Below are positions 16,062-37,827 of a stretch of DNA of 38,213 nt, piece by piece. The stretch is taken from positions 1 to 38,213 of IMG/VR virus record IMGVR_UViG_3300032223_002028; one strand, written 5' to 3'. The stretch comes from a virus. Both the position numbers and the translations under genes were made by a program. The notes beneath the pieces are model-generated. The model did not search any database. It was not told the origin of the DNA and was given only the letters and a program-made list of their open reading frames with translations. The first letter of the stretch is position 1. Every line of letters starts with the position of its first letter.

Positions 16062-16426
16062 TCGTCCGCCAGATCACCTATCCCCCCAGCGCTAACCGCC
16101 TCTGGAGAGCCGTCAGGGGCCGCCAGATCAAGTCCGCGGAATATCGGCAATGGCTGGAGGCGAACGCCGCCCACGCCCTCGCCTGGCCCCGCGTTGTGGC
16201 GCTCGACGGACACTACGCCCTCCACGTCGTGGCGACCGCCCCCGACAAGCGCAGGCGCGACCTCGACAACCTGCTGAAGCCCATCGGGGATCTAATCCAG
16301 CACCTGGGCCTCGTCACTGACGACAAGAACATGCGCCGTCTGACTGCTGAATGGGGCTCGGCTCCATCTGCCGGCGTCCAGATCACCATAAAGCCAATAG
16401 GCGGAAGTGATGACGTCAACGGCTGA
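16058..16426 (+). CDS. rusA: RusA-like Holliday junction resolvase (122 aa)
   Basis: TYPPSANRLWRAVRGR at the N-terminus and the catalytic acidic cluster Asp68, Asp70 (RRRDLDNLLKP) and Asp88-Asp89 (GLVTDDKNM) identify RusA, a homodimeric nuclease that resolves four-way DNA junctions. The length matches the E. coli enzyme (about 120). The TTG at 16058 is preferred, with GGGGGGAG 6 bases upstream and a tiny ORF ending in it. It would resolve junctions made during ERF-type recombination or replication. Confidence 0.9.
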   Translation: MIVRQITYPPSANRLWRAVRGRQIKSAEYRQWLEANAAHALAWPRVVALDGHYALHVVATAPDKRRRDLDNLLKPIGDLIQHLGLVTDDKNMRRLTAEWGSAPSAGVQITIKPIGGSDDVNG

Positions 16427-17042
16427 TTGCCGACCGTGGAGCGAGGCCGAGACCGCGTATCTGCGCGCTCACCGCGACGATCCCTTTCCTGAATTGTGCG
16501 CCATGCTTCCTGGCCGATCAACCCAGGGCATTCGCAACAAGATCAAGAATATCGGTCTTCAGAGGACTCGCGTTACTCAGACCCTGTGGCCGAAGGAGCG
16601 TCAAGACGCCTTGGCCCGGATGTTCAAGGATGGCTTGTCGGATGAGGCCATCGGCAAGGCCCTGAACGCCACGGAGAAGGCGGTTGCCTGTCGTCGGCGG
16701 GAGATGGGCTATCACCGGGAGCGCGCGTCCTACAGGCTTTCCCGCGAGCAGACTGAGAAGCTGGAGCAGCTTCGCTCGCAGGGCACGGGGTATCTCAAGA
16801 TCGCCCGCTTGATCGGCGCGCCGAGCTACACCGTCGCGCGCTATATCGACCGCAACCGGATTTACTGGGAATGCCCCGAAAGCCCGGAGCACGAGCGGAA
16901 GGACGCTGAGTTCGTCGCCCGCCTGATCGGCGAGGGCGGTATGCCCCGGTTCCGCGAGGACGCGCGCCACAACTTGATGCCGGGCTGGTGCGACGAACAT
17001 GGCCGCCCGTGGGCTGGGCTCTATCGGAGGCTGGCGGCATGA
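16410..17042 (+). CDS. Multi-helix-turn-helix DNA-binding protein (210 aa)
   Basis: Three helix-turn-helix-like units in a row: residues about 8-45 (SANT/Myb-like: WSEAETAYLRAHRDD...STQGIRNKIKNIGLQR), 55-90 (RMFKDGLSDEAIGKALNATEKAVACRRREMG) and 105-140 (LRSQGTGYLKIARLIGAPSYTVARYIDR). The C-terminal third is charged. The middle unit resembles the DNA-binding part of GcrA-type regulators in a general way. Start ATG 16410 is preferred over GTG 16407. It may control early or middle genes. Confidence 0.65.
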   Translation: MTSTADCRPWSEAETAYLRAHRDDPFPELCAMLPGRSTQGIRNKIKNIGLQRTRVTQTLWPKERQDALARMFKDGLSDEAIGKALNATEKAVACRRREMGYHRERASYRLSREQTEKLEQLRSQGTGYLKIARLIGAPSYTVARYIDRNRIYWECPESPEHERKDAEFVARLIGEGGMPRFREDARHNLMPGWCDEHGRPWAGLYRRLAA

Positions 17043-17143: not shown

Positions 17144-17395
17144 ATGAACCAGATCACGCCCATCAAAGTCAGTGACGCGGACGACATCGCGCAAGTCGCG
17201 GCGGTCGCCCTCCGACGTTTCTTGAGGCAACCAGCTTCCCGCCACTTGTCGGCCAAGCTGTTGATGATCAGCGCGCTTGCCCTCTATGCCGAAGTCACTT
17301 CGGATGTTGAGGCTGTGGCGGTGACGAACGAACTGCTGCCGACCCTGGCCGCCCCGCAAGCCGCGCTCTCCGATGGAGGGGCGGGTGGCCTATGA
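17144..17395 (+). CDS. Small helical protein, paralog of the gene at 19455 (83 aa)
   Basis: The core AVALRRFLRQPASRHLSAKLLMISALALYAEVTSDVEA matches AVAFRRYSREPETRPLSSRMLLLSALALHAEETSAGEA in the gene at 19455, with the same spacing. The two are clearly paralogs, though diverged at the DNA level. All-helical, with no recognised function. It is immediately upstream of the methyltransferase: its TGA lies between the ATG codons of the two overlapping frames there. Confidence 0.65.
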   Translation: MNQITPIKVSDADDIAQVAAVALRRFLRQPASRHLSAKLLMISALALYAEVTSDVEAVAVTNELLPTLAAPQAALSDGGAGGL

Positions 17396-18786
17396 CATGG
17401 ATCTACGTTTCGACAGCCTCAACGTCATCAGCCTCTGCACCGGAGGCGGCGGCCTTGATCGGGCCCTTGAGCTGGCAATCCCATCTGCTCGCCCGGTCTT
17501 GTGCGTGGAGAGGGAAGCCTTCTCCGTCGCTAATCTGGTCGCGCAGATGCAACGCGGCGTCATGGCTGCGTCGCCTATTTGGAGCGATGTGCGAACCGTC
17601 CCTGGCCGACGCTTCCGTGGACGCGTGGATGGCGTCATTGGGGGTATCCCCTGCCAGCCTCACAGCCTTGCCGGAAAGCGTCTTGGGCGAGAGGACGAGC
17701 GCGACCTCTGGGCTCCGGCGCGGCGGATATTCGTTCAGTCCGGCGCCTGGTTCATCCTCATCGAGAACGTCGGCGGGATGCTCTCCAGCGGCGGCGCCGA
17801 ACGAGTCTACCGAGACCTTCTCCGACTGGGCTGCAAGGTTGAGGGAGGCATCTTCCGCGCGTCGGAAGTCGGCGCGAACCATGAGCGCGAACGCCTCTTC
17901 ATCCTCGGCGTGGCCGACGCCTCAGGCGCGGGACGGCAAGGGGGTGGATCGGACGGAGATCGACCGGGGCAACACGCGACCGCTGAACGAGGTGGTGGCG
18001 CAATGGCCGACGCCGACGTCCCTCAGCTTTGCCGACAGCCATCAGCCGGGGAACAGCTACTTGTACAACAAGACCATGGCGCTAACAGCGGACATCTGGT
18101 CCACGCCGCGAGCATCGGACGGGGAGAAGGGCGGCCCGAACCAGAGCTTCGGCGCGGGCGGGATTCCGCTGGCATCGCAATCTGCGAATTGGCCGACTCC
18201 TACCGCCCTGGATCGCCCTCGCAACGACGAGACGCTGGCGAAGTCGGCTGCTTTCCGGAAGCGCAACGCCAATCAGAATACGGTGCCGCTCTATCTGCGC
18301 GAGGTAGCGCAGAAGTGGTCGACTCCTTCGGTGGCGGACGTGACCGGCGGCCATGCGAGCCGCAGTGGACCGCGGAAGAACGAGCCGCTGTTGAATGGGC
18401 AAGCCAAGGCCCTCTCTTCGCCCCCGGCCCCGGAGACGCCGAGTCCTGGCGCCGGATCGCACAACAGCACCCTGAGCGCCTACCTGCGGTGTCGCGCTAC
18501 GACCTGTTCCGAATTGCGTGCAGAAAGGCGGGCGTTGATCCGGATGAGCATCCGCGTCCACGGCAAGAAGTGGGCGCACGCCAAGCCCAAGCCGTTCGTG
18601 CGTCCATCATTCAGGAGGTCGCTCAATCCACGCTTCGTCGGGGATCTGATGGGCTGGCCACCCGGATTGACGAGCTTCGAATGCTCGGAAACGGCGTCAG
18701 CGATCTTCAGGGCGCGTATGCGGTCCGCTCTCTCGCAACTGACCTTGCGCCCCGCTCCGCCGGCGCAGCTCTCCTTGTTCGGCTGA
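17392..18786 (+). CDS. Overprinted open frame over the methyltransferase, W-P/S-T-P repeat protein (464 codons)
   Basis: A second frame is open for nearly the whole methyltransferase gene. Its ATG overlaps the stop of the previous gene (ATGA). The middle has five W(P/S)TP motifs, with Trp at codons 174, 205, 236, 267 and 309, three of them exactly 31 codons apart. The C-terminus reads LNPRFVGDLMGWPPGLTSF, codons about 411-429. I recall both motifs from phage and bacterial proteins linked to cytosine methyltransferases. In 17911-18027 this frame ends 35 of 39 codons in G/C, the methyltransferase frame only 23 of 39. The N-terminal 100 codons look less gene-like, so the true start may be further in. 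Function unknown; a methyltransferase partner or target-recognition protein is possible. Confidence 0.5.
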   Translation: MTWIYVSTASTSSASAPEAAALIGPLSWQSHLLARSCAWRGKPSPSLIWSRRCNAASWLRRLFGAMCEPSLADASVDAWMASLGVSPASLTALPESVLGERTSATSGLRRGGYSFSPAPGSSSSRTSAGCSPAAAPNESTETFSDWAARLREASSARRKSARTMSANASSSSAWPTPQARDGKGVDRTEIDRGNTRPLNEVVAQWPTPTSLSFADSHQPGNSYLYNKTMALTADIWSTPRASDGEKGGPNQSFGAGGIPLASQSANWPTPTALDRPRNDETLAKSAAFRKRNANQNTVPLYLREVAQKWSTPSVADVTGGHASRSGPRKNEPLLNGQAKALSSPPAPETPSPGAGSHNSTLSAYLRCRATTCSELRAERRALIRMSIRVHGKKWAHAKPKPFVRPSFRRSLNPRFVGDLMGWPPGLTSFECSETASAIFRARMRSALSQLTLRPAPPAQLSLFG

Positions 18787-18803
18787 TGGAGCAGACCCGA
18801 TGA
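17397..18803 (+). CDS. DNA cytosine-5 methyltransferase (468 aa)
   Basis: All core motifs occur in order: motif I LCTGGGGLD (residues 13-21, AdoMet binding), motif IV GGIPCQPHS with catalytic Cys86, motif VI ENV (Glu123), motif VIII HERERLFILG, and motif X LGNGVS (Asn432). The region between motifs VIII and X, where target recognition lies, is low-complexity with recurring ADA/ADS units and is where the second frame shows better codon use. ATG 17397 has GGTGG 8 bases upstream. No restriction nuclease is beside it, so it is probably an orphan methyltransferase protecting phage DNA or altering host control. Confidence 0.85.
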   Translation: MDLRFDSLNVISLCTGGGGLDRALELAIPSARPVLCVEREAFSVANLVAQMQRGVMAASPIWSDVRTVPGRRFRGRVDGVIGGIPCQPHSLAGKRLGREDERDLWAPARRIFVQSGAWFILIENVGGMLSSGGAERVYRDLLRLGCKVEGGIFRASEVGANHERERLFILGVADASGAGRQGGGSDGDRPGQHATAERGGGAMADADVPQLCRQPSAGEQLLVQQDHGANSGHLVHAASIGRGEGRPEPELRRGRDSAGIAICELADSYRPGSPSQRRDAGEVGCFPEAQRQSEYGAALSARGSAEVVDSFGGGRDRRPCEPQWTAEERAAVEWASQGPLFAPGPGDAESWRRIAQQHPERLPAVSRYDLFRIACRKAGVDPDEHPRPRQEVGARQAQAVRASIIQEVAQSTLRRGSDGLATRIDELRMLGNGVSDLQGAYAVRSLATDLAPRSAGAALLVRLMEQTR

Positions 18804-19407: not shown

Positions 19408-19458
19408 ATGAACAATTCCCCCCAACCCCCAACCCTCACGGGGGATAGAGCCGCATGA
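19408..19458 (+). CDS. Possible 16-residue leader peptide
   Basis: MNNSPQPPTLTGDRAA, with GGGGG about 10 bases upstream and a TGA that overlaps the ATG of the next gene (ATGA). The Pro-rich content could slow ribosomes. It is the only coding candidate between the divergent promoter region and 19455. Confidence 0.3.
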   Translation: MNNSPQPPTLTGDRAA

Positions 19459-19694
19459 GCAAGCCTGTTCCGGTTTCAACAAATGACAAAGCCGATGGGG
19501 TGATGCGGATGCTCGCCGTGGCGTTTCGTCGGTACAGCCGGGAGCCTGAGACGCGGCCTCTGTCATCGAGGATGTTGCTCCTTTCAGCCCTAGCGCTCCA
19601 TGCGGAGGAGACTTCGGCTGGAGAGGCGGCGCTCGTGGCGGCTGAAGGCGTCGCCAATCTCGGCATCGCATCCCGTGCGCGGGGTGAGCGATGA
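19455..19694 (+). CDS. Small helical protein, paralog of the gene at 17144 (79 aa)
   Basis: Shares the helical core RMLAVAFRRYSREPETRPLSSRMLLLSALALHAEETSAGEAALVA with the gene before the methyltransferase. GGGGGAT upstream serves as a ribosome site. Its TGA overlaps the ATG of the DnaB gene. The two paralogs bracket the methyltransferase and the leftward pair. Function unknown; proximity to DnaB hints at replication. Confidence 0.65.
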   Translation: MSKPVPVSTNDKADGVMRMLAVAFRRYSREPETRPLSSRMLLLSALALHAEETSAGEAALVAAEGVANLGIASRARGER

Positions 19695-21103
19695 GCCTTG
19701 CCCACAGCCCGCCCGAGCCGTCAGAATCCACGATCGAGGCTGAACAGGCCGTGATCGGCGGTGCTTTGCACGACATCGCCGCCTGTGCCGAGGCCCTGGA
19801 GCGTCTGCGGCCCGATCACTTCGCCGACCCGGTGCATGGCCGGGTCTGGGACGCGATCCTGACCCGCCAGCGCGCCGAACTGGTGGCCGATCCCGTCGTC
19901 ATATCGGCGGCGCTCCAGTCCGACCCCGGCTTTCAGCAGATGGGTGGGATTACGTGGCTGTGCGACTGCATCGACAACGCCGCGGTCTGGGCGGTCGGCG
20001 CCCATGTCGAGCTGATCTTGGATGCGGCGGCGCGGCGCTGGATCGTCATGCTGGCGCGGGACGCCGCCGACCGGGCCGCAAAGTCCCACCAGGAGACCGC
20101 TGAGGCCATCCTGTCCGATCTGGAGCGCGGATGTGCCGAGATCGCGCGGGAAGGCTCCACCAAGCCCCAGGCCGTGCCGGCTGGCCTGTCGGCGCTCGAT
20201 ACCATCGAGGCGGCATGGCGCGGCGAGTTCGTCGGGACGTCGGTTGGCCTTGAATGCCTGGACCACGTCACCGGGGGCATCCGCCAGGACGACGTCTGGT
20301 TCCTCGGTGGCCGCACGAGTATGGGCAAGTCGGCTGTCGCCCTGGCCTTGGCCCGTGGCATCGCAGAGCAGGGCAGGGGGGTGATGTTCTTCTCCCTCGA
20401 AATGCCGCTCCGTGAGGTTCAGGCCCGGTTGATCTCCGACATCGGCTACGACGCCGAGCGCCGCTATGATCGGGGCTTCGAGAACGTGCGCTATGGCGAT
20501 CTGCTGAAGGGTAGGGGCTCGCCCGAGCAAAAGGAGCGCGTCCGGTATGCGGCCCGGAAACTGGCCGCTCTGCCCCTCGTCGTTTCCGACGTCGGCGGCC
20601 TGACGATTGACGACATCCGCAGCCAAGCCCTGCGCCAGATGCGGGCGTGGGAAAAGGCCGGGGTCGAACGCGGCGCCATCCTGATCGACCATATCGGGCT
20701 GGTGAAGCCGGCCGGGCGGGGCAGAGACGGCAACAAGGCCGCCGAGACCGCCGACATCGTCAACGAGCTGAAGGCCATCGCCAAGCAGCTTCGCGCGCCG
20801 ATCATCGCGCTCTGCCAGGTCAATCGGAACACCGAGAGCCGGAACGACAAGCACCCCACGCTGGCGGACCTGAACTGGTCGGGCGCCATCGAGCAGATCG
20901 CGGACATGATCTGCCTTCTCTACCGCGAGGCTTATTATCTGGAGCGTTCGCCAGAGCATGACGATCAGGACCGCGCCGCCTCGGTGGAGCACGACATCGA
21001 ACTGATGATCCACAAGAACCGCTCCGGGCCGATCTGCACCCTCAAAGCCTTCGTGGACATCGCCAGCAACGTCATCCGTGACTATCCGGAGGCACGCCGT
21101 TGA
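19691..21103 (+). CDS. dnaB: DnaB-like replicative helicase (470 aa)
   Basis: The N-terminal domain (EAEQAVIGGALHD...HFADPVHGRVWDAI, about 15-110) and the RecA-like C-terminal domain of DnaB are both present. Walker A is GGRTSMGKS at 206-214; Walker B is ILIDH at 330-334. A motif-3 like segment (IIALCQVNRNTE) and the arginine-finger region (NRSGPICTLKAF) follow. The length fits the family. It unwinds the phage origin, loaded by the product of the next gene. GGGGTGAG is the ribosome site, and its ATG overlaps the previous stop. Confidence 0.95.
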   Translation: MSLAHSPPEPSESTIEAEQAVIGGALHDIAACAEALERLRPDHFADPVHGRVWDAILTRQRAELVADPVVISAALQSDPGFQQMGGITWLCDCIDNAAVWAVGAHVELILDAAARRWIVMLARDAADRAAKSHQETAEAILSDLERGCAEIAREGSTKPQAVPAGLSALDTIEAAWRGEFVGTSVGLECLDHVTGGIRQDDVWFLGGRTSMGKSAVALALARGIAEQGRGVMFFSLEMPLREVQARLISDIGYDAERRYDRGFENVRYGDLLKGRGSPEQKERVRYAARKLAALPLVVSDVGGLTIDDIRSQALRQMRAWEKAGVERGAILIDHIGLVKPAGRGRDGNKAAETADIVNELKAIAKQLRAPIIALCQVNRNTESRNDKHPTLADLNWSGAIEQIADMICLLYREAYYLERSPEHDDQDRAASVEHDIELMIHKNRSGPICTLKAFVDIASNVIRDYPEARR

Positions 21104-24995: not shown

Positions 24996-27193
24996 TGGCA
25001 AAACGCAAGGTCACGATCGACGACGATGAACTCCTGCGGATCGTCGGTGACGAGCGCAAGATTTCCATCGGCTTCGAGTACGACCACAGCTTGCTCCACG
25101 AGCGGGAACTCGCGCTGAACTACGCCAAGGGCCAGATGCCGGATGTGCCGGCCTTGCCCAACCGCTCCAAGGCCGTGTCCACCGACGTCGCGGACGCCAT
25201 CAACACGGCGTTGCCCGATCTGGTGGACATCTTCATCGGTGGAGATGACGTCGCCACGTTCCAGGCCCTCGGTGAGCAGGACGAGGAGCAGGCGAAGCTT
25301 GAGACCGAATATGTCTCGCACGTCATCTTCGACAAGAACCCCGGCTTTATGGCGTTCTACACGCTGATTAAGGACGCCCTGGAATCCAAGCTCGGCATCT
25401 GCAAGTTCTGGTGGTCCGAGCACGAGGAGCTTGATGAGAACGACTACACGGTCCCGCCCGATCAGTTCGAGATGGTCAAGGCCATTGCCGAGCAGCAGGG
25501 CGCCGAGGTCGATGATGTCGAGACCGAGGAAGACGGCCAAGTCTCGTTCACGGTCAGGACCAAGAAGCAGGTCGGCTGCGTCAAGATCAAGCCGGTTCCG
25601 CCCGAGGACTTCTCGTTCGCCCGGGATACGGTCTATCTGCGTGACGGCACCTACTGCAACATGCGCTCGCGGCCTCGCGCCCAGCAGTTGATCGAGGACG
25701 GCTACGATCCCGACCTTGTGGACCGGCTGCCCGAATATGGGATGCCATCACAGGTGGAGGTGTTGGCCCAGGCGCGCGACACAGCCAACGAGTCGGTGTT
25801 CCGGCCGGCCGGATCGACCCGCCAGCTTCGCACCGTGGAGGTGATGGAGCACTACATCCGCCTGGACCGCAACGGGGACGGCAAGACCGAACTCTGGCGC
25901 GTGGTGACCGGCGGGAACGAGACGATACTGCTGGAGGCCGAAGAGGTCGATATGGTGCCGTTCGCGGCCATCACGCCTTACCCGGTCACGCACAGGTTCA
26001 TAGGTCAATCCCTGGCCGACCTGATGATCGAGATTCAGCGCATCAAGACCGCGCTGCTGCGGATGCTGCTGGACTCGGGCTACTTCGCGCTCAACCAGCG
26101 CAATGAAGTCGCCATGTCGGGCGCCAACGAGTGGACGATCAGCGACCTGCTGCGGAACGAGCCGGGCCTGCCGGTCAGGTCGAAGACAGGAGAGGCGGTT
26201 CGGCCGATCCAGTCGGGGGCGCTGACCTTCGACGTCACCGGGGCGCTTGAGTACGTCAACACGGTGGCCGAACAGCGGACCGGCATCGTCAGGAACGCGC
26301 AAGGGCTCAACCCCGACACGCTGCACGACACGGCGGACGGGGCGCGCCAACTGATCGCGGCGGCGCAGAAGCGTATCCGCATGATGGCCCGCATCTTCGC
26401 TGAGACGGGCATCAAGGATTTGTTCCTCGGCGTGCATCATCTGGTGCGCACCCACGCCCAGGAGGTCCAGGCTTACGTTGGCGGCAACTGGGCGAACCTG
26501 AACCCGAAGCAGTGGCCCAAGCGCGACCAGCTCAACATCGAGATCGGGGTTGGCTCGGGTGGGCACGAGCATGACATCATCGCCGGCAACCAACTCATGG
26601 GGATGCTGGAGAAGGCCGTACAGGCCCAAGGCGGGCCGGATGGAGCCCTGACCAACTCCAAGGCCATCGTGACGGCTGCCGTGCGCCTGACGGAGACGCT
26701 GGGCTTCAAAAACGGGGAGCAATACTGGACCGACCCGGCCACGTACAAGCCGCCCCCGCCCCAGGCCGACCCGAAGACCGCGACCGATCAGGCCAAGGTG
26801 CAGAACGACCAGCAGAAGCTCCAGGTGGACGCGCAATCGTCGGACGCCGCCCATCAGTTGGCTATCCAGAAGTTCCAGTTCGAGACCCAGGCCCATCAGG
26901 ACAAGACCGGCCTGGAGAGCCGCAGGCTGGACATCGAAGCCGAGAAGGTGCGCCAGGACGCGCTTGACCGCGAGCACGCCCGGCAACTGAAGGAAGTCGA
27001 GACCCACGCCCGTATCGCCCTGGACGCCCGCAAGAACGACCAGACCTATGACGTGGGGATGACGGGGATTCAGGAGCGCCACGCCACGGCCATCCAGACC
27101 ACGGCCATGAAAGGTCACGTCGAACTGGCGGTTCAGGCTTCAGAGGCTCGCGACGAGCAGATGGAGCAAGACACTGACGGCGACGGCCAGTGA
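24995..27193 (+). CDS. Portal protein (732 aa)
   Basis: The GTG at 24995 overlaps the terminase stop (TAGTG) and has GGGGTGG 5 bases upstream. At 732 residues it is long, as in P22-like podoviruses. Features include an N-terminal acidic region, the KFWW segment, a beta-rich wing, GFMAFYTLIKDALESKLG, and the stem-like ALLRMLLDSGYFALNQRNEVAM. The C-terminal 130 residues are Gln/Lys-rich coiled coil, corresponding to a portal barrel. It forms the dodecameric ring through which DNA is packaged and released. Confidence 0.9.
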   Translation: MAKRKVTIDDDELLRIVGDERKISIGFEYDHSLLHERELALNYAKGQMPDVPALPNRSKAVSTDVADAINTALPDLVDIFIGGDDVATFQALGEQDEEQAKLETEYVSHVIFDKNPGFMAFYTLIKDALESKLGICKFWWSEHEELDENDYTVPPDQFEMVKAIAEQQGAEVDDVETEEDGQVSFTVRTKKQVGCVKIKPVPPEDFSFARDTVYLRDGTYCNMRSRPRAQQLIEDGYDPDLVDRLPEYGMPSQVEVLAQARDTANESVFRPAGSTRQLRTVEVMEHYIRLDRNGDGKTELWRVVTGGNETILLEAEEVDMVPFAAITPYPVTHRFIGQSLADLMIEIQRIKTALLRMLLDSGYFALNQRNEVAMSGANEWTISDLLRNEPGLPVRSKTGEAVRPIQSGALTFDVTGALEYVNTVAEQRTGIVRNAQGLNPDTLHDTADGARQLIAAAQKRIRMMARIFAETGIKDLFLGVHHLVRTHAQEVQAYVGGNWANLNPKQWPKRDQLNIEIGVGSGGHEHDIIAGNQLMGMLEKAVQAQGGPDGALTNSKAIVTAAVRLTETLGFKNGEQYWTDPATYKPPPPQADPKTATDQAKVQNDQQKLQVDAQSSDAAHQLAIQKFQFETQAHQDKTGLESRRLDIEAEKVRQDALDREHARQLKEVETHARIALDARKNDQTYDVGMTGIQERHATAIQTTAMKGHVELAVQASEARDEQMEQDTDGDGQ

Positions 27194-27480: not shown

Positions 27481-28482
27481 ATGTCCGAAGCCAACGCGGA
27501 AGCGGTGGATAGCGGCGCGCTGTCCATCGACCAGGCTATTGCGGCGATTATCGAGCCCGAGGCTGAACCCGCAGGTGCGGACACCCAACCCGACAACCAA
27601 GAACTTGACGCCCCGTCCCCGGGCGATGAGGACGCCAGCGAGCCCGTAGAGGCCGCCGCTGACGAAGACGCGGAAACGCAAGAGCCGGAAGCCCCGGCCG
27701 TCGATGCGCCGCATTGGTGGACAGCCGACAAGAAGGCGAAGTTCGCGGAACTCTCACCCGAGCTGCAAGCGATTGTAGCGGAGGAAGAGGCCAACCGGGA
27801 ACGAGCCGTCTCCAGGCTGAAGCAGGAGGCCGCCGAGAGCCGCAAGCAAGCCGACGCAGAACTGGCGAAGATGGGGGACATTACGTCCCGGCTGACCCAG
27901 ACGCTGACCCAGGCCGAACAGGTGTTTGCCGGCAAGTGGCCTGCCGAGATTGATTGGGTCGCCACGGCCCAGCAGTACGGCGTCGAGCAGGCTCAGATGC
28001 TCAAGCTGGAGTGGGAACGTGACACGCAGCTCCTTGGTCGGCTCGACGCCGAACGGAAGGAAGCTGAGGGCCGCGCATTCCAAAGCTTCGTGCAGGCTGA
28101 GTTCGCCAAGCTCCCCGAAGTCGATCCCGAGTTAGCCGACCCGAAACAAGGTGCTCAGCGGCGTCAGACCGTCACTGAATACCTCGTCAAGCAAGGCATC
28201 CCGGTCGATCAGGTGAAGCACGCGGGCGCGCTCGAATACGCCCTCGCCCACAAGGCTTTCAAGTGGGACCAGCACGTCGCGGAGCAGGCGAAAGCCAAGA
28301 CCGCGCTGGCGAATCCCAAGCCCAAACCCGTCCCTGCTGCCCGCACCGTGGCCCCGGCCGCTGCGGCTCCGCAGGTCTCCTCCCGTGAACGCGCCGTCCA
28401 GCCGATCCGCAATCGCTTCGCCCAGACGCGAGGGATTGACGACGCGGCGGCGCTCATCCTCGCCATGGACACCCGACAATGA
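27481..28482 (+). CDS. Scaffolding protein (333 aa)
   Basis: An acidic, low-complexity N-terminus (about 1-75, rich in Glu/Asp/Pro/Ala), a central coiled coil (about 95-150: EEEANRERAVSRLKQEAAESRKQADAELAKM) and a basic C-terminus (PIRNRFAQTRG). This is the usual build of podovirus scaffolds, whose C-terminus binds the capsid protein. It lies between portal and major capsid, and its stop overlaps the capsid start (ATGA). The assignment is from architecture and position. Confidence 0.8.
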   Translation: MSEANAEAVDSGALSIDQAIAAIIEPEAEPAGADTQPDNQELDAPSPGDEDASEPVEAAADEDAETQEPEAPAVDAPHWWTADKKAKFAELSPELQAIVAEEEANRERAVSRLKQEAAESRKQADAELAKMGDITSRLTQTLTQAEQVFAGKWPAEIDWVATAQQYGVEQAQMLKLEWERDTQLLGRLDAERKEAEGRAFQSFVQAEFAKLPEVDPELADPKQGAQRRQTVTEYLVKQGIPVDQVKHAGALEYALAHKAFKWDQHVAEQAKAKTALANPKPKPVPAARTVAPAAAAPQVSSRERAVQPIRNRFAQTRGIDDAAALILAMDTRQ

Positions 28483-29432
28483 CCGCTCCCACGAACATCT
28501 CCACCACGCTCTCGGCCATCGGCCAGCGTGAAGACCTCACCGACATCATCTATCGCGTCGCTCCCCAGAAGACCCCCTTCATCTCCAACATCGGCAAGTC
28601 CACCGCCAAGGCCCGCTACCACGAGTGGCAGACCGAGACCCTGGCCGCGCCGAGCGCCACCAACGCCCAGCTCGAAGGCGATGACGTCGGCACCCTGGAC
28701 GCCGAGAACCTGACCAGCCGTATCGCCAACTACTGCCAGATCTTCCGCAAGACCACAGGCGTCGCCCGCACCATCGAGGTTGTGGACAAGGCTGGTCGTG
28801 CGTCGGAACTCGCCCGTCAGAAGACCCTCAAGGGGATCGAGATGCGGCGCGACATGGAGACCCGCTTCATCGGCAACTATGCGTCGGTGGCGGAATCCGG
28901 CGGCACCTCGCGTAAGTCGGCGGGCATCCTGGCTTGGCTGACCTCGAACGTGTCGCGCGGCTCGGGCGGTTCCTCGGGCGGCTTCTCCACCGGCATCGTG
29001 GCGGCCGCGACCAACGGCACCCAGCGGACCTGGACCGAGACCCTGCTCAAGTCGGTGCTCGCCACCGCGTTCAACAACGGCGCCGAGCCCAGCCAAATCT
29101 ACATGGGCGCGACCCAGAAGCAGGGCTTCTCCGGCTTCACCGGCATCGCTGACATCCGCAAGGACGCCGGCAGCGGGCAGGCCACCATCATCGCCGGTGC
29201 GGAAATCTACGTCTCCGACTTCGGCCAACTGGTGGCGATCCCGCACCCCTACGGCCTGACCCGCGACGCGGTGCTGGTCGATCCCAACCTCGTGGCGGTG
29301 GCCACGCTGGACGGGTTCAAGGCCCAGGAACTCGCCAAGACCGGCGACTCCACCCGCGTGATGATGACCGCTGAGGCCACCCTGGAGTGCCGCAACGAGA
29401 AGGGTCACGCGGCGGTCGCTGACCTGAGCTGA
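28479..29432 (+). CDS. Major capsid protein, SU10/DUF5309 family (317 aa)
   Basis: The motifs REDLTDIIYRVAPQKTPFISNIGKSTAKARYHEWQTETL, NYCQIFRKTTGVARTIEVVDKAGRASELARQ and METRFIGNYA are typical of the SU10-type (DUF5309) capsid proteins with the HK97 fold. The tail DLNLVAVATLDGFKAQELAKTGDSTRVMMTAEATLECRNEKGHAAV completes the domain. The length (about 320) fits. A hairpin at 29441 follows the gene. Confidence 0.95.
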   Translation: MTAPTNISTTLSAIGQREDLTDIIYRVAPQKTPFISNIGKSTAKARYHEWQTETLAAPSATNAQLEGDDVGTLDAENLTSRIANYCQIFRKTTGVARTIEVVDKAGRASELARQKTLKGIEMRRDMETRFIGNYASVAESGGTSRKSAGILAWLTSNVSRGSGGSSGGFSTGIVAAATNGTQRTWTETLLKSVLATAFNNGAEPSQIYMGATQKQGFSGFTGIADIRKDAGSGQATIIAGAEIYVSDFGQLVAIPHPYGLTRDAVLVDPNLVAVATLDGFKAQELAKTGDSTRVMMTAEATLECRNEKGHAAVADLS

Positions 29433-29440
29433 TTGAACTA

Positions 29441-29466
29441 GGGGCGGCTCAATCGCGGGCCGCCCC
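29441..29466 (+). terminator. Hairpin after the major capsid gene
   Basis: GGGGCGGC and GCCGCCCC form a perfect 8-bp stem around a 10-base loop, followed by GCTTTCC. The T-run is weak. Such hairpins after capsid genes often stop part of the transcripts and protect the capsid message. Confidence 0.55.
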
Positions 29467-29484
29467 GCTTTCCAAGAGGATTCC

Positions 29485-29718
29485 ATGGCCCGCAGGCCCG
29501 TTGCTCTCGCTGACACCACCAAGGTCCAATGCCGCGTCCTCAAGATGGGCGATGGCAAGATTCAGACCGGCGCCCACGCCACAGCCGATCTGCTGCGTGA
29601 TGACGACAGCGGAGACCTGTCCTATCCGACCTATGCGTTCGGGGACGTGTTCGAGGTCGAACGGCCCATTGGCGAAGCGCTCGAAGACCGGGGCTTCGTG
29701 GAAATCCAATCCAAATGA
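29485..29718 (+). CDS. Small virion protein after capsid (77 aa)
   Basis: The protein ARRPVALADTTKVQCRVLKMGDGKIQTGAHATADLLRDDDSGDLSYPTYAFGDVFEVERPIGEALEDRGFVEIQSK reads as a small beta-barrel. It begins just after the capsid hairpin with an AGAGGA ribosome site. Candidate roles are head-completion or decoration. The next gene starts in its stop (ATGA). Confidence 0.6.
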   Translation: MARRPVALADTTKVQCRVLKMGDGKIQTGAHATADLLRDDDSGDLSYPTYAFGDVFEVERPIGEALEDRGFVEIQSK

Positions 29719-34660: not shown

Positions 34661-35145
34661 ACCTTCCCGAAATGGCGGCTCTGGACGAGAACTGCGCTTC
34701 GATGTTCCGCCGGGCGCTCAAGGACAACGCCTCGGCTATCGACTGCCTTAGCAAGCTTTTCCAGATCGCCCACATCCTTGACGACCTGATCGACAAGGAC
34801 CGCACGCCCACCGATGACGAGATAGCCGCCGCCTTCTGGCTGGCCCTGGTCGATGTGCCGGAAAATGCGTTCTTCCAGGCTCATGCGTCAGTGCTGCGGC
34901 CGATCCTGGCGAGCGCGATGCTGAATTGGCTGACCGCCAACAAGTTGGAATACGGCGCGGACGAGGCCGATCACCGGATCGCCTTCATCCTGCGAAGCTC
35001 TTACGTCGATTTGCTCTCGATGGGCGCGTTCCTTGTGGGCGGCTTTGCGTGGGCGACTGAGATAGGCCCCGAAATCCGTCGCTGGGTACACGACGAGGGC
35101 TTCGACCAATACCTCCTTAACCTTGCCACCGAAAAGGGGGCTTAA
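34657..35145 (+). CDS. Conserved helical late protein (162 aa)
   Basis: ATG 34657 overlaps the previous stop (ATGA), so it is preferred over an ATG at 34594 inside the previous gene. The protein is all-helical (MNLPEMAALDENCASMFRRALKDNASAIDCLSKLFQIAHILDDLID...FWLALVDVPENAFFQAH). A hydrophobic segment occurs at about 120-140. I recall this type from podoviruses and siphoviruses as an uncharacterised protein of the internal-protein block. Confidence 0.7.
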   Translation: MNLPEMAALDENCASMFRRALKDNASAIDCLSKLFQIAHILDDLIDKDRTPTDDEIAAAFWLALVDVPENAFFQAHASVLRPILASAMLNWLTANKLEYGADEADHRIAFILRSSYVDLLSMGAFLVGGFAWATEIGPEIRRWVHDEGFDQYLLNLATEKGA

Positions 35146-35148
35146 GCC

Positions 35149-36207
35149 ATGGCATGCGGCACTACTGCCAGCGCCAAGACCGACACCACGAACGGAAACA
35201 GCGCGTCGAACATGACGCGCACTAATCCGCAGTGGGTCACCGATACGACCCAAGGGCTCGCCGGCCAGATCGGTAATGCGGCGTCGGCCGATCCGCAAAG
35301 CTACGTGGCCGGGCCGAGCGACCTTCAGAACCAGCAGTTCGGCTTGGCCGGGGGTCTCGGAGCAACCGGGGCCGCAAACCTGACCCAGGCCGGGCAGATG
35401 GCCGGGGCGGCGCAGACCCCCAATACGGCCATGTATGGCGGCTACAACCCCGCCATGATGAACGGCGCCACGATCGCCCCGACCGCCATGGCGCAGGGCC
35501 AGACGGCGGCGGGTGGGATCGGCTCGTACCTCAATCCGTACAGCGATTATGTCGCCGGCAACACGCTGAACGAGATGGACCGCGCTCGCCAACTGACGCT
35601 CAATCAGAACGGGCAGGGCGGGGTTCTCGCCGGACAATATGGCGGCTCGCGTCAAGGCGTGCTCGACGCCAACACCAATCGCGACTTCCTCACCACGGCG
35701 GGCAACACGCTGGGGAACATCTATTCGAGCGGGTTCAACACCGCGCTTGACGCCTCCAACAGCGACGCCAACCGGGCGCAGGCAGCCAACCTCCAGAACG
35801 CCCAGGCGCAGAATACCTCGAACCTCACGCAAGCCCAACTGGACCAGCAGGCGTCTGCCGCCAACCAGGGCGCCAACAATCAGGCGTGGCAGTACAACGC
35901 GGGCGTCTACAACGCGGGCAACCAGTTCAACGCGGGGCAGGCGGACAACGCGGCAAATCGTTCGCTGGCGGGCTCGCAAATCCTCGGCGGTCTCGGCAAC
36001 ACGAACCTCAACTATCTTGCCAACGCGGGGTTCACGCAACAGGGGCTCAACCAGGCCCTGGCGGGCGCGCCGCTCTCGGTCCTGCAACAACTTTCGCAGA
36101 CCTACGGCTCCCTGCCGCTCGGCCTTTTCAGCGGCACGAACACCAACAATACCAACCACTCGAACACGACGAGCCTCGGCGCGACGGCCGCCGCCAGTTT
36201 TCCGTAG
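35149..36207 (+). CDS. Internal virion/ejection protein, Asn/Gln/Ala-rich (352 aa)
   Basis: Ala/Asn/Gln/Gly make up most of the sequence. A conserved core YLNPYSDYVAGNTLNEMDRARQLTLNQN...GQYGGSRQGVLDANTNRDFL (about 125-180) is a signature I recall from a widespread podovirus protein near the ejection genes. The C-terminal half has short repeats (NLQNAQAQNTSNLTQAQLDQQ). Low complexity and helix content suit a flexible internal protein. Followed after 9 bases by the M15-containing protein. Confidence 0.7.
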   Translation: MACGTTASAKTDTTNGNSASNMTRTNPQWVTDTTQGLAGQIGNAASADPQSYVAGPSDLQNQQFGLAGGLGATGAANLTQAGQMAGAAQTPNTAMYGGYNPAMMNGATIAPTAMAQGQTAAGGIGSYLNPYSDYVAGNTLNEMDRARQLTLNQNGQGGVLAGQYGGSRQGVLDANTNRDFLTTAGNTLGNIYSSGFNTALDASNSDANRAQAANLQNAQAQNTSNLTQAQLDQQASAANQGANNQAWQYNAGVYNAGNQFNAGQADNAANRSLAGSQILGGLGNTNLNYLANAGFTQQGLNQALAGAPLSVLQQLSQTYGSLPLGLFSGTNTNNTNHSNTTSLGATAAASFP

Positions 36208-36216
36208 GGGAATCGC

Positions 36217-37827
36217 ATGGGCCTTTTTTCTGCCTTCGATCCGACGATTAACTTCAACCCGGCGCCCCCGCCCGCCCAGCCGCCCGTGCCCCAACCGCCG
36301 GTCTGGGGACAGCGTGGGGCCGTGGGGGACATGCTGGACAATATGTTCCTCGGCGGGACCATCCAGGCCACCCGCAAGGAAGAATACCAGCGGGCGATAG
36401 CCGATTATCAGTCCCGCATGCAGCAGCAGATTCTTGCCAGTTTGCCGCCGGAACAGCGGGCGGCCTACATCGCCAACCCGGCTGAGTTCGGCAAGGCCAT
36501 GTCCGAAGGGCTGTTCAAGCCCATCACCGCAGAGGCCAATCAGCGGGTTGTGACCAATGGTGCGACCGTCAATGGTGGCCCCGGCCTCGTGACCATTGAC
36601 GACAATTCCGGCCAGGCCGTCAACAGCATGAACGGGCCGCTCCCGATCCCAGCGTTGGGCGGCGACATCGACCCGACAACCGGCGTCTCGAGGCGCAGCG
36701 GCGTTCAGTTTCCCGTGGCGATCTTCAACAAGGTCGCTCCAGGCGAAACGGGGAAATACACCGCGCCGCCCGGCCTACAGCCCGGCCTACAGCCCGGCCT
36801 ACAGCCCCCCATGGGTCCGAATGGCGCCCCCGGCCCCATGCCTGTCCCGTCGCAAGGTCCGGCTCCGGTCCCCGCCGCTGGACCGCCGGCCATTCCGCAG
36901 GTTCCTGGCGTCCCCGATCCCACGGCGCTGATGCGGGGCCTTCCCGGCGCGCAGATCACGTCAGGCCTTCGCACCCCGGCTCACAACGCGGCTGTGGGCG
37001 GCGTGCCGAACTCCTATCATCTGACCGGGAACGCCTACGACATCACGCCCCCCAAGGGCGTTTCCATGGCCCAACTGGCGACAGCGGCGACGACCGCGTT
37101 CCCTGGCGTCAAGGCGATCAACGAAGGCAACCACGTCCACCTTCAGCCGAACGCCAATGTTCCGCGGCTGCCGTCGAGTTTGCAGGGGGGGATGGTAAGC
37201 CCGCCCATGAGCGTCCCCGGCTTGCCTGGCCTCCAGCAAAGGCAGCCTGACGGCACGTACAAGCACCTGGACGGCACGGGCCTCACCGCCGACGACGCCC
37301 TCAGGATGGGTAAGAACGTGCTGGATGATCCAAGCTATCGGATGGCCCAGGAGTCGGGCGCGGCATTCAAGTCCATGGTCTCGCTGGCTGGGCAGAAGCA
37401 GGGCGGGATGCGCGCCTACGCCTTGCGCGACACCTTCGCCCGCACGATCAACCCGGGGGCCGTGGCGCGCTCGGGGACCATCGAGGCGATCAAGCAGTCG
37501 CAGGGCGTCCCGGCCAACGTGCAGGCTTACCTCCTGAACCTCAAGGGCGACGGCGACGTTCCCCCGCAGATCGTGCAGCAGATCATCGCCGCTGCCGCGC
37601 CGTTCGCTCAATCCCATTGGGACGCGGCCAACGCGCTCAATCAGCATTACGCCGGGATCGCCAAGGGCAGCGGCCTTGATCCGCGCATGGCGACGGCCCC
37701 GCTCGATCAGCGCCCGGCCGTTCCGGCTGCTGCAATCGTGCCGGTCTCCAACCCCGCCCAGGCGATGGCCCTCCCGCCCGGTACCCGCTTCCGCGGGCCA
37801 GACGGCAAGATCAGGATTCGTCACTGA
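36217..37827 (+). CDS. Ejection protein with M15 peptidase-like domain (536 aa)
   Basis: A D-Ala-D-Ala/endopeptidase M15-type zinc site is visible: SYHLTGNAYD (Ser266, His268, Gly271, Ala273, Asp275; pattern SxHxxGxAxD) and NHVH (His306, His308). Such domains cut peptide cross-links in the cell wall, here probably locally during DNA entry. The N-terminus is Pro-rich, and a PGLQ repeat precedes the catalytic domain (see 36772). The C-terminal 200 residues are helical (MRAYALRDTFARTINPG...PPQIVQQIIAAAAPFA). It is the middle of three internal-protein genes; the next gene starts in its stop. Confidence 0.85.
   Translation: MGLFSAFDPTINFNPAPPPAQPPVPQPPVWGQRGAVGDMLDNMFLGGTIQATRKEEYQRAIADYQSRMQQQILASLPPEQRAAYIANPAEFGKAMSEGLFKPITAEANQRVVTNGATVNGGPGLVTIDDNSGQAVNSMNGPLPIPALGGDIDPTTGVSRRSGVQFPVAIFNKVAPGETGKYTAPPGLQPGLQPGLQPPMGPNGAPGPMPVPSQGPAPVPAAGPPAIPQVPGVPDPTALMRGLPGAQITSGLRTPAHNAAVGGVPNSYHLTGNAYDITPPKGVSMAQLATAATTAFPGVKAINEGNHVHLQPNANVPRLPSSLQGGMVSPPMSVPGLPGLQQRQPDGTYKHLDGTGLTADDALRMGKNVLDDPSYRMAQESGAAFKSMVSLAGQKQGGMRAYALRDTFARTINPGAVARSGTIEAIKQSQGVPANVQAYLLNLKGDGDVPPQIVQQIIAAAAPFAQSHWDAANALNQHYAGIAKGSGLDPRMATAPLDQRPAVPAAAIVPVSNPAQAMALPPGTRFRGPDGKIRIRH
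36772..36807 (+). repeat. Three 12-bp tandem repeats
   Basis: GGCCTACAGCCC is repeated three times without change, encoding a PGLQ repeat in the linker before the M15 domain. Exact copies suggest recent expansion, with length varying among relatives. Confidence 0.85.

What the first reader, a model, noticed from the sequence alone, without database searches (positions are those of the whole stretch)
17392..18803. 464-codon open frame overprinted on a cytosine-5 methyltransferase
Two same-strand frames are open for about 1.4 kb. One holds all methyltransferase motifs at both ends. The other holds five W(P/S)TP repeats, three exactly 31 codons apart, and an LNPRFV..LMGWPPG end. In 17911-18027 the second frame ends 35 of 39 codons in G/C, the methyltransferase frame 23 of 39, so the middle looks shaped by the second frame. 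Starts of both frames lie at the same junction (ATGACATGG). I recall WPTP proteins next to phage methyltransferases, but have not checked.
Basis: partly seen in the sequence, partly recalled or inferred. Interest (0 to 1): 0.72.

Follow-up and report, generated by a model that had tools for sequence, protein, structure and literature searches.

The report
Two proteins overprinted on one methyltransferase gene
One stretch of phage DNA encodes two different long proteins in overlapping reading frames, apparently the catalytic half and the missing target-recognition half of one DNA methyltransferase, and the same arrangement recurs in phages and prophages of many bacteria while genome annotations usually show only one of the two proteins.

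Summary
A C5-methyltransferase frame (MT, 17397-18803) and a +1 'WPTP' frame (WP, 17392-18786) are both open. It is not a GC artefact: all 52 related loci collected keep WP at +1 of MT. Substitutions between homologs follow the MT codon phase in motifs I-VIII, switch to the WP phase in the middle, and return to MT at motif X. In a second subfamily (phages and enterobacterial prophages), +1 stops occur at chance before a candidate internal start (33 seen, 35.4 expected) and vanish after it (0 seen, 23.4 expected). WP carries shuffled ~31-42-codon cassettes and a motif-IX-like end. AlphaFold2 folds MT motifs I-VIII and X confidently and leaves its middle disordered. In actinophages the same cassettes lie in frame with motifs IX-X, sometimes as a separate C-terminal ORF. 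Best reading: one DNA segment encodes two subunits of one cytosine methyltransferase, MT supplying motifs I-VIII and X, WP the target-recognition array and motif IX. This resembles M.EcoHK31I (motif IX on a separate small polypeptide), with a modular cassette array added. Translation of WP is very likely; the subunit role is inferred. No description of this arrangement was found in the papers searched.

The parts
17397..18803 (+). C5-cytosine methyltransferase frame (MT, alpha-like); upstream alternative start 17373
   Evidence: Pfam PF00145 E=4e-20 over residues 17-181 only; TIGR00675 only over profile 1-162 and below cut-off; AF2: residues 1-178 and ~436-466 confident, 179-322 about pLDDT 30
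17392..18786 (+). WPTP frame (WP, beta-like), +1 relative to MT, 464 codons
   Evidence: open in homologs, always +1; codon phase of the middle; phrog_27243 and phrog_1008 matches
17375..17380 (+). GGAGGG, Shine-Dalgarno-like, 11 nt before the WP ATG and 16 nt before the MT ATG
   Evidence: read from sequence
17640..17657 (+). MT motif IV (GGIPCQ)
17757..17771 (+). MT motif VI (LIENV)
17859..17894 (+). MT motif VIII region (ASEVGANHERER); the same DNA in WP encodes the conserved ..SARRKS.. segment
17911..18003 (+). WP cassette 1 (WPTPQARDGKG...RPLNEVVAQ)
18004..18096 (+). WP cassette 2 (WPTPTSLSFADSHQPGNSYLYNKTMALTADI)
18097..18189 (+). WP cassette 3, type E (WSTPRASDGEKGGPNQSF...)
   Evidence: same type in Sphingomonas, Arthrobacter phage and Gordonia phage loci
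18190..18315 (+). WP cassette 4, type D (WPTPTALDRPRNDETLAKSAAFRKRNANQNTVPLYLREVA)
   Evidence: 19 loci, mean identity 70% in WP frame, 39% in MT frame
18316..18414 (+). WP cassette 5, type B (WSTPSVADVTGG...NEPLLNGQAKAL)
   Evidence: also in frame in actinophage MTases
17931..18362 (+). MT-frame middle (VADA...ADA...), predicted disordered and evolving as the off-frame of WP
   Evidence: AF2 pLDDT about 30; substitution phase
18613..18666 (+). WP motif-IX-like end RRSLNPRFVGDLMGWPPG
   Evidence: profile match to the actinophage in-frame LNPAFVEWMMGLPxGH segment before motif X; sub-threshold alignment of that actinophage segment to DRM methyltransferases 4onj/4onq
18687..18722 (+). MT motif X (GNGVSDLQGAYA)
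   Evidence: AF2 pLDDT 84-97 near residues 436-460

Best explanation
The locus is a dual-coding phage gene that makes two full-length proteins from one DNA segment. The MT frame makes a C5-MTase chain with motifs I-VIII (AdoMet binding and catalysis) and motif X, but no folded target-recognition domain and no recognisable motif IX. The WP frame, started 5 nt upstream of the MT start, makes a second chain whose middle is a modular array of WPTP cassettes occupying the target-recognition position, followed by a motif-IX-like segment. The two chains most likely assemble into one cytosine-5 DNA methyltransferase, WP providing target recognition and motif IX in trans. Each frame is shaped where its own domain is functional and is mostly tolerated where the other is. 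Shown here: conservation, codon phase, openness of both frames, cassette sharing, predicted disorder of the MT middle. Inferred: translation of WP, complex formation, the recognition role of the cassettes, and protection of phage DNA from host restriction.
For: 52 of 52 loci have WP at +1 of MT (loci fetched partly by WP patterns). Mismatch rates at MT codon positions 1/2/3: N-half .225/.178/.363, middle .354/.146/.147, C-tail .194/.168/.337; bootstrap over loci gives P(p1>p3) of 0, 1 and 0. 39 of 43 loci have no MT-frame stop over a mean 593-nt middle, including loci with host GC3 of 0.35-0.50 such as L018, L023 and L019. In the second subfamily +1-frame stops upstream of a candidate internal start are at chance (33 vs 35.4) and absent downstream (0 vs 23.4), and L106 has an SD there (GGAAAGGAGGAAAGTTTGATGAC). 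Synonymous variation in that subfamily is ~0.95 of expectation upstream and 0.35-0.6 in a block after it. Cassette D is 70% identical in the WP frame among pairs whose MT N-halves are 29% identical. Cassettes occur in different orders (window E-D-B; L021 D-B-E). In Float294 and KBurrousTX cassettes plus EWMMG..GNGV form a separate ORF beside the motif I-VIII ORF; in Shauna1, Ritam007 and Derg part of the array is fused in frame. AF2 disorder of the MT middle. Precedents M.AquI and M.EcoHK31I (PMC3404938).
Against: No expression data. AF2 gives the WP protein alone low confidence (mean pLDDT 55) and no fold match. The match of the motif-IX-like segment to solved MTases is sub-threshold (E 0.76). 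L021 and L065 have a broken MT middle. Many B1 loci were fetched with the WP N-terminal pattern, so conservation of MTWLYVP there is partly by construction. The synonymous-constraint clusters are only borderline by column permutation (P 0.045 and 0.065).
Confidence: 0.65

Rival explanations
1. WP is a genuine overprinted protein but not an MTase subunit: a separate phage protein, such as an anti-restriction factor or regulator, that happens to live on the MTase gene.
For: No significant sequence or fold match of WP to solved MTases; WP has conserved N-terminal segments (LSGLT.EPST, ISSL) with no MTase counterpart.
Against: In actinophages the same cassettes are in frame between motif VIII and motifs IX-X of the MTase, or form an ORF ending in motif X; the MT frame lacks a folded middle and a recognisable motif IX.
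Confidence: 0.2
2. One chain is made by ribosomal frameshifting: motifs I-VIII in MT frame, shift +1 into WP, shift back before motif X.
For: The substitution phase along the gene follows exactly this path; actinophages show fused and split versions.
Against: It needs two efficient shifts. It does not explain why WP stays open over motifs I-VIII in the window's subfamily, why stops vanish exactly after an internal start in the second subfamily, or why the MT frame stays open through the middle in 39 of 43 loci.
Confidence: 0.1
3. Chance open frame in GC-rich DNA; WP is not expressed.
For: Long off-frame ORFs are common in 65% GC DNA, and this window has antisense ORFs of 430-468 aa.
Against: the pair also stays open in genes of 44-53% GC (L018, L020, L023, L106, L107).
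Confidence: 0.02

Closest known systems
M.EcoHK31I (two-polypeptide C5-MTase, YGGCCR)
   Same: Large subunit has motifs I-VIII and X, motif IX is in a second smaller polypeptide (PMC3404938). From memory, not checked: the small subunit is encoded within the large one in another frame.
   Different: There the TRD was predicted in the large subunit (PMC3404938); here the MT middle is predicted disordered and the cassette array is in the second frame. In this window WP spans nearly the whole gene (464 codons). No restriction enzyme gene was recognised next to it in the annotated relatives viewed; the context is phage replication and recombination genes.
M.AquI (split C5-MTase)
   Same: Catalytic motifs I-VIII and the distal TRD/IX/X part on separate chains (PMC3404938); the actinophage Float294 and KBurrousTX pairs look like this.
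   Different: In this window motif X is in the catalytic chain, and the two genes overlap almost completely.
Multispecific C5-MTases of Bacillus phages (SPbeta, phi3T; from memory)
   Same: Tandem short recognition modules between motifs VIII and IX, modular exchange.
   Different: Those are single-frame enzymes with established module specificities; cassette specificity here is unknown and homology was not tested.
PHROG 1008 / 27243 / 31772 and PHROG 363
   Same: The WP families (1008 'DNA methyltransferase', 27243 unknown function, 31772 'DNA methyltransferase') and the MT family (363) are catalogued.
   Different: They are listed as separate families; that they can be two frames of the same DNA is not stated there.

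Membership tests
C5-cytosine DNA methyltransferase (MT frame) | Motifs I-VIII: PF00145 N-half, PCQ, ENV, RxR | tested here: met
   (E=4e-20, residues 17-181), Foldseek to M.HaeIII E 2e-11 over ~170 columns
C5-cytosine DNA methyltransferase (MT frame) | Motif X GNxVxxxxA | tested here: met
   GNGVSDLQGAYA at 18687, AF2 confident
C5-cytosine DNA methyltransferase (MT frame) | Folded TRD and motif IX in the same chain | tested here: not met
   pLDDT ~30 over residues 179-322; TIGR00675 only profile 1-162, below cut-off
M.EcoHK31I-type two-polypeptide MTase | Motif IX on a second polypeptide | tested here: inconclusive
   WP has RRSLNPRFVGDLMGWPPG; profile match to the actinophage in-frame segment before motif X (hhalign 96.8%), match of the latter to DRM MTase sub-threshold
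M.EcoHK31I-type two-polypeptide MTase | Second polypeptide in an alternative frame of the first | tested here: met
   for conservation of both frames; that M.EcoHK31I itself has this gene layout is from memory
M.EcoHK31I-type two-polypeptide MTase | Both chains required for activity | not testable with these tools
   needs an assay
M.EcoHK31I-type two-polypeptide MTase | Sequence homology to M.EcoHK31I subunits | not tested
   its sequences and primary paper (PMC306636) were not held
Multispecific MTase with tandem TRDs | Each module specifies a target | not testable with these tools
   modularity and reordering seen; specificity unknown

The most novel reading that the evidence does not exclude
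A widespread phage system encodes the recognition subunit of a cytosine methyltransferase by overprinting it on the catalytic subunit, with exchangeable WPTP cassettes as plug-in target-recognition modules; shuffling cassettes changes the specificity carried by one frame while the other frame merely has to stay open.
Probability: 0.4. Interest if true: 0.85.

Novelty: new variant of a known kind. Interest (0 to 1): 0.72.

Why it matters
It is a long (about 460-codon) same-strand overlap with comparative evidence for coding in both frames, present in phages of Alphaproteobacteria and Actinobacteria and in E. coli and Salmonella prophages or phage-like elements. Current annotation shows one frame or the other: two near-identical Synechococcus phages are annotated in opposite frames, and nearly all enterobacterial records viewed list only the MT frame. 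If WP is the recognition subunit, many phage 'DNA cytosine methyltransferases' tested as single genes would appear inactive, and cassette arrays would give a handle on how phages change methylation specificity to evade restriction.

Tried and rejected
MT-frame protein as query in viral contigs gave nothing. The flanking-gene control for codon positions had only 30 HSPs, too few to use. The '0 of 266.6' middle stop count is by construction (the region was cut to the MT ORF) and is replaced. The synonymous freeze at MT codons ALRP is partly by construction because loci were fetched with the MTWLYVP pattern; invariance of FRKRNANQNT likewise. The null overestimates stops by about a quarter (frame +2: 223 seen, 299 expected). 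AF2 of WP and Foldseek against viral models gave no fold. The PDB profile search with WP found only chance-level ribosomal S11 and MS2 hits. A double programmed frameshift was considered and set aside because both frames stay open throughout. Literature searches for WPTP, overlapping MTase frames and overprinting found no description.

Full report
OBSERVATION. The window is an IMG/VR virus record. The MT frame (17373 or 17397 to 18803) carries C5-MTase motifs I-VIII and X. The WP frame (17392-18786, +1) carries five W(P/S)TP repeats, four at exactly 31-codon spacing, and a C-terminal LNPRFVGDLMGWPPG. VADA in MT and WPTP in WP are the same DNA: GTGGCCGACGCC read in two frames.

IS IT MORE THAN CHANCE? 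Length alone does not settle it at 65% GC. Homologs were fetched from IMG/VR, GTDB genomes, INPHARED, PLSDB and E. coli genomes. In all 52 distinct loci with both ORFs, WP is in frame +1 of MT. Because loci were partly fetched with WP patterns, that count describes the family; it is not a frequency among all MTases. Actinophage loci L024-L026, where WP does not cover the N-half, act as controls: they have 9, 8 and 6 stops in that frame, as many as expected.

WHICH FRAME IS CODING WHERE. Counting mismatches by codon position in DNA alignments of homologs: in the N-half the third MT position varies most (.363 against .225 and .178); in the middle the first MT position, which is the third WP position, varies most (.354 against .146 and .147); in the C-tail the MT pattern returns (.337). 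Bootstrap intervals over loci do not overlap. So selection reads motifs I-VIII and X in the MT frame and the cassettes in the WP frame. Yet the MT frame remains stop-free through the middle in 39 of 43 loci (exceptions L021, L025, L042 and L065, of which L025 is a split actinophage locus and L042's WP ORF runs past the gene).

THE SECOND SUBFAMILY GIVES THE SHARPEST TEST. In loci related to Bordetella phage PHB09 and to E. coli and Salmonella elements, the +1 frame has stops at chance frequency before codon ~92 (33 seen, 35.4 expected from synonymous redraws) and none from there to motif VIII (0 seen, 23.4 expected) over 14 loci. In several that point is an ATG (GATGAC, MTSGTYG), with an SD-like GGAAAGGAGGAAAGTTT in L106. 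Synonymous variation at four-fold sites drops from about 0.95 of expectation to 0.35-0.6 shortly downstream. This is what internal initiation of a second protein would produce. In the window's own subfamily WP starts at ATG/GTG-AC-ATGG, 5 nt before the MT start.

CASSETTES. WP middles are arrays of units of about 31-42 codons. Several types recur across phages of distant hosts and in different orders. Type D is 70% identical at protein level among loci whose MT N-halves are only 29% identical; the same DNA in the MT frame is 38% identical. Part of that stretch was the search pattern, so the invariant core is by construction; the flanks are not.

LINK TO THE METHYLTRANSFERASE. In actinophages the cassettes occupy the place between motif VIII and motifs IX-X of the MTase. 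Float294 and KBurrousTX have one ORF with motifs I-VIII and a second, overlapping ORF with cassettes, EWMMG and GNGV; Shauna1, Ritam007 and Derg have a single ORF in which the first cassettes are off frame and later ones in frame. AF2 of the window MT frame gives a confident motif I-VIII core and motif X and a disordered stretch 179-322. NCBI's dcm model matches only its N-half and below cut-off. WP, folded alone, is low confidence, which is compatible with a subunit needing its partner but is no evidence for it.

MECHANISM. The simplest model that uses all of this is a two-chain C5-MTase: MT supplies cofactor binding, catalysis and motif X; WP supplies target recognition and motif IX. M.EcoHK31I has motif IX on a separate chain and M.AquI is split within the variable region after motif VIII (PMC3404938). 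That the M.EcoHK31I genes overlap in different frames is from memory; the primary paper was not held. The difference is the cassette array and the extent of overprinting. The biological role, most likely protection against host restriction, is inferred from gene type and phage context (RusA upstream, DnaB downstream).

UNCERTAINTY. That WP is a translated protein: about 0.96. That it is the partner subunit of MT: about 0.65. That each cassette is a target-recognition module: about 0.4.

Noticed in passing
window 16407-17042: Protein with weak, below-cutoff GcrA-like and HTH matches (PF07750 E 1.6e-5) directly upstream; GcrA is a methylation-linked regulator in Caulobacter (from memory).
   Followed up: no
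window 17144-17395 and 19455-19694: Two similar small proteins (..AVALRRFLRQPASRHLSAKLLMISALALYAE.. and ..AVAFRRYSREPETRPLSSRMLLLSALALHAE..), one just before the MTase and one just before DnaB; apparent paralogs.
   Followed up: no
L022 2998-4113 and L090 1486-2625: Near-identical Synechococcus phages Ssp-JY39 and Yong-M2-251 are annotated in opposite frames (WP as hypothetical protein, MT as cytosine-specific DNA methyltransferase).
   Followed up: yes
L103 1489-2658 (E. coli Ec1117): RefSeq marks the gene as two incomplete DNA cytosine methyltransferase pseudogenes although the MT frame is open throughout; probably because the middle has no match in that frame.
   Followed up: partly
L108 1851-3243 (Klebsiella aerogenes plasmid): A copy in which both reading frames are interrupted by frame changes, the most clearly decayed copy of the pair seen.
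   Followed up: no
window 19721-21013 (-), 25748-27118 (-), 28209-29558 (-), 34888-36294 (-): Long antisense ORFs (430-468 aa) opposite likely genes; probably GC-rich off-frame ORFs.
   Followed up: no
L018, L019, L023 gene versus contig: The dual-coded gene has higher GC than its contig (0.53 vs 0.42, 0.53 vs 0.47, 0.48 vs 0.41), as expected if stops must be avoided in two frames.
   Followed up: partly
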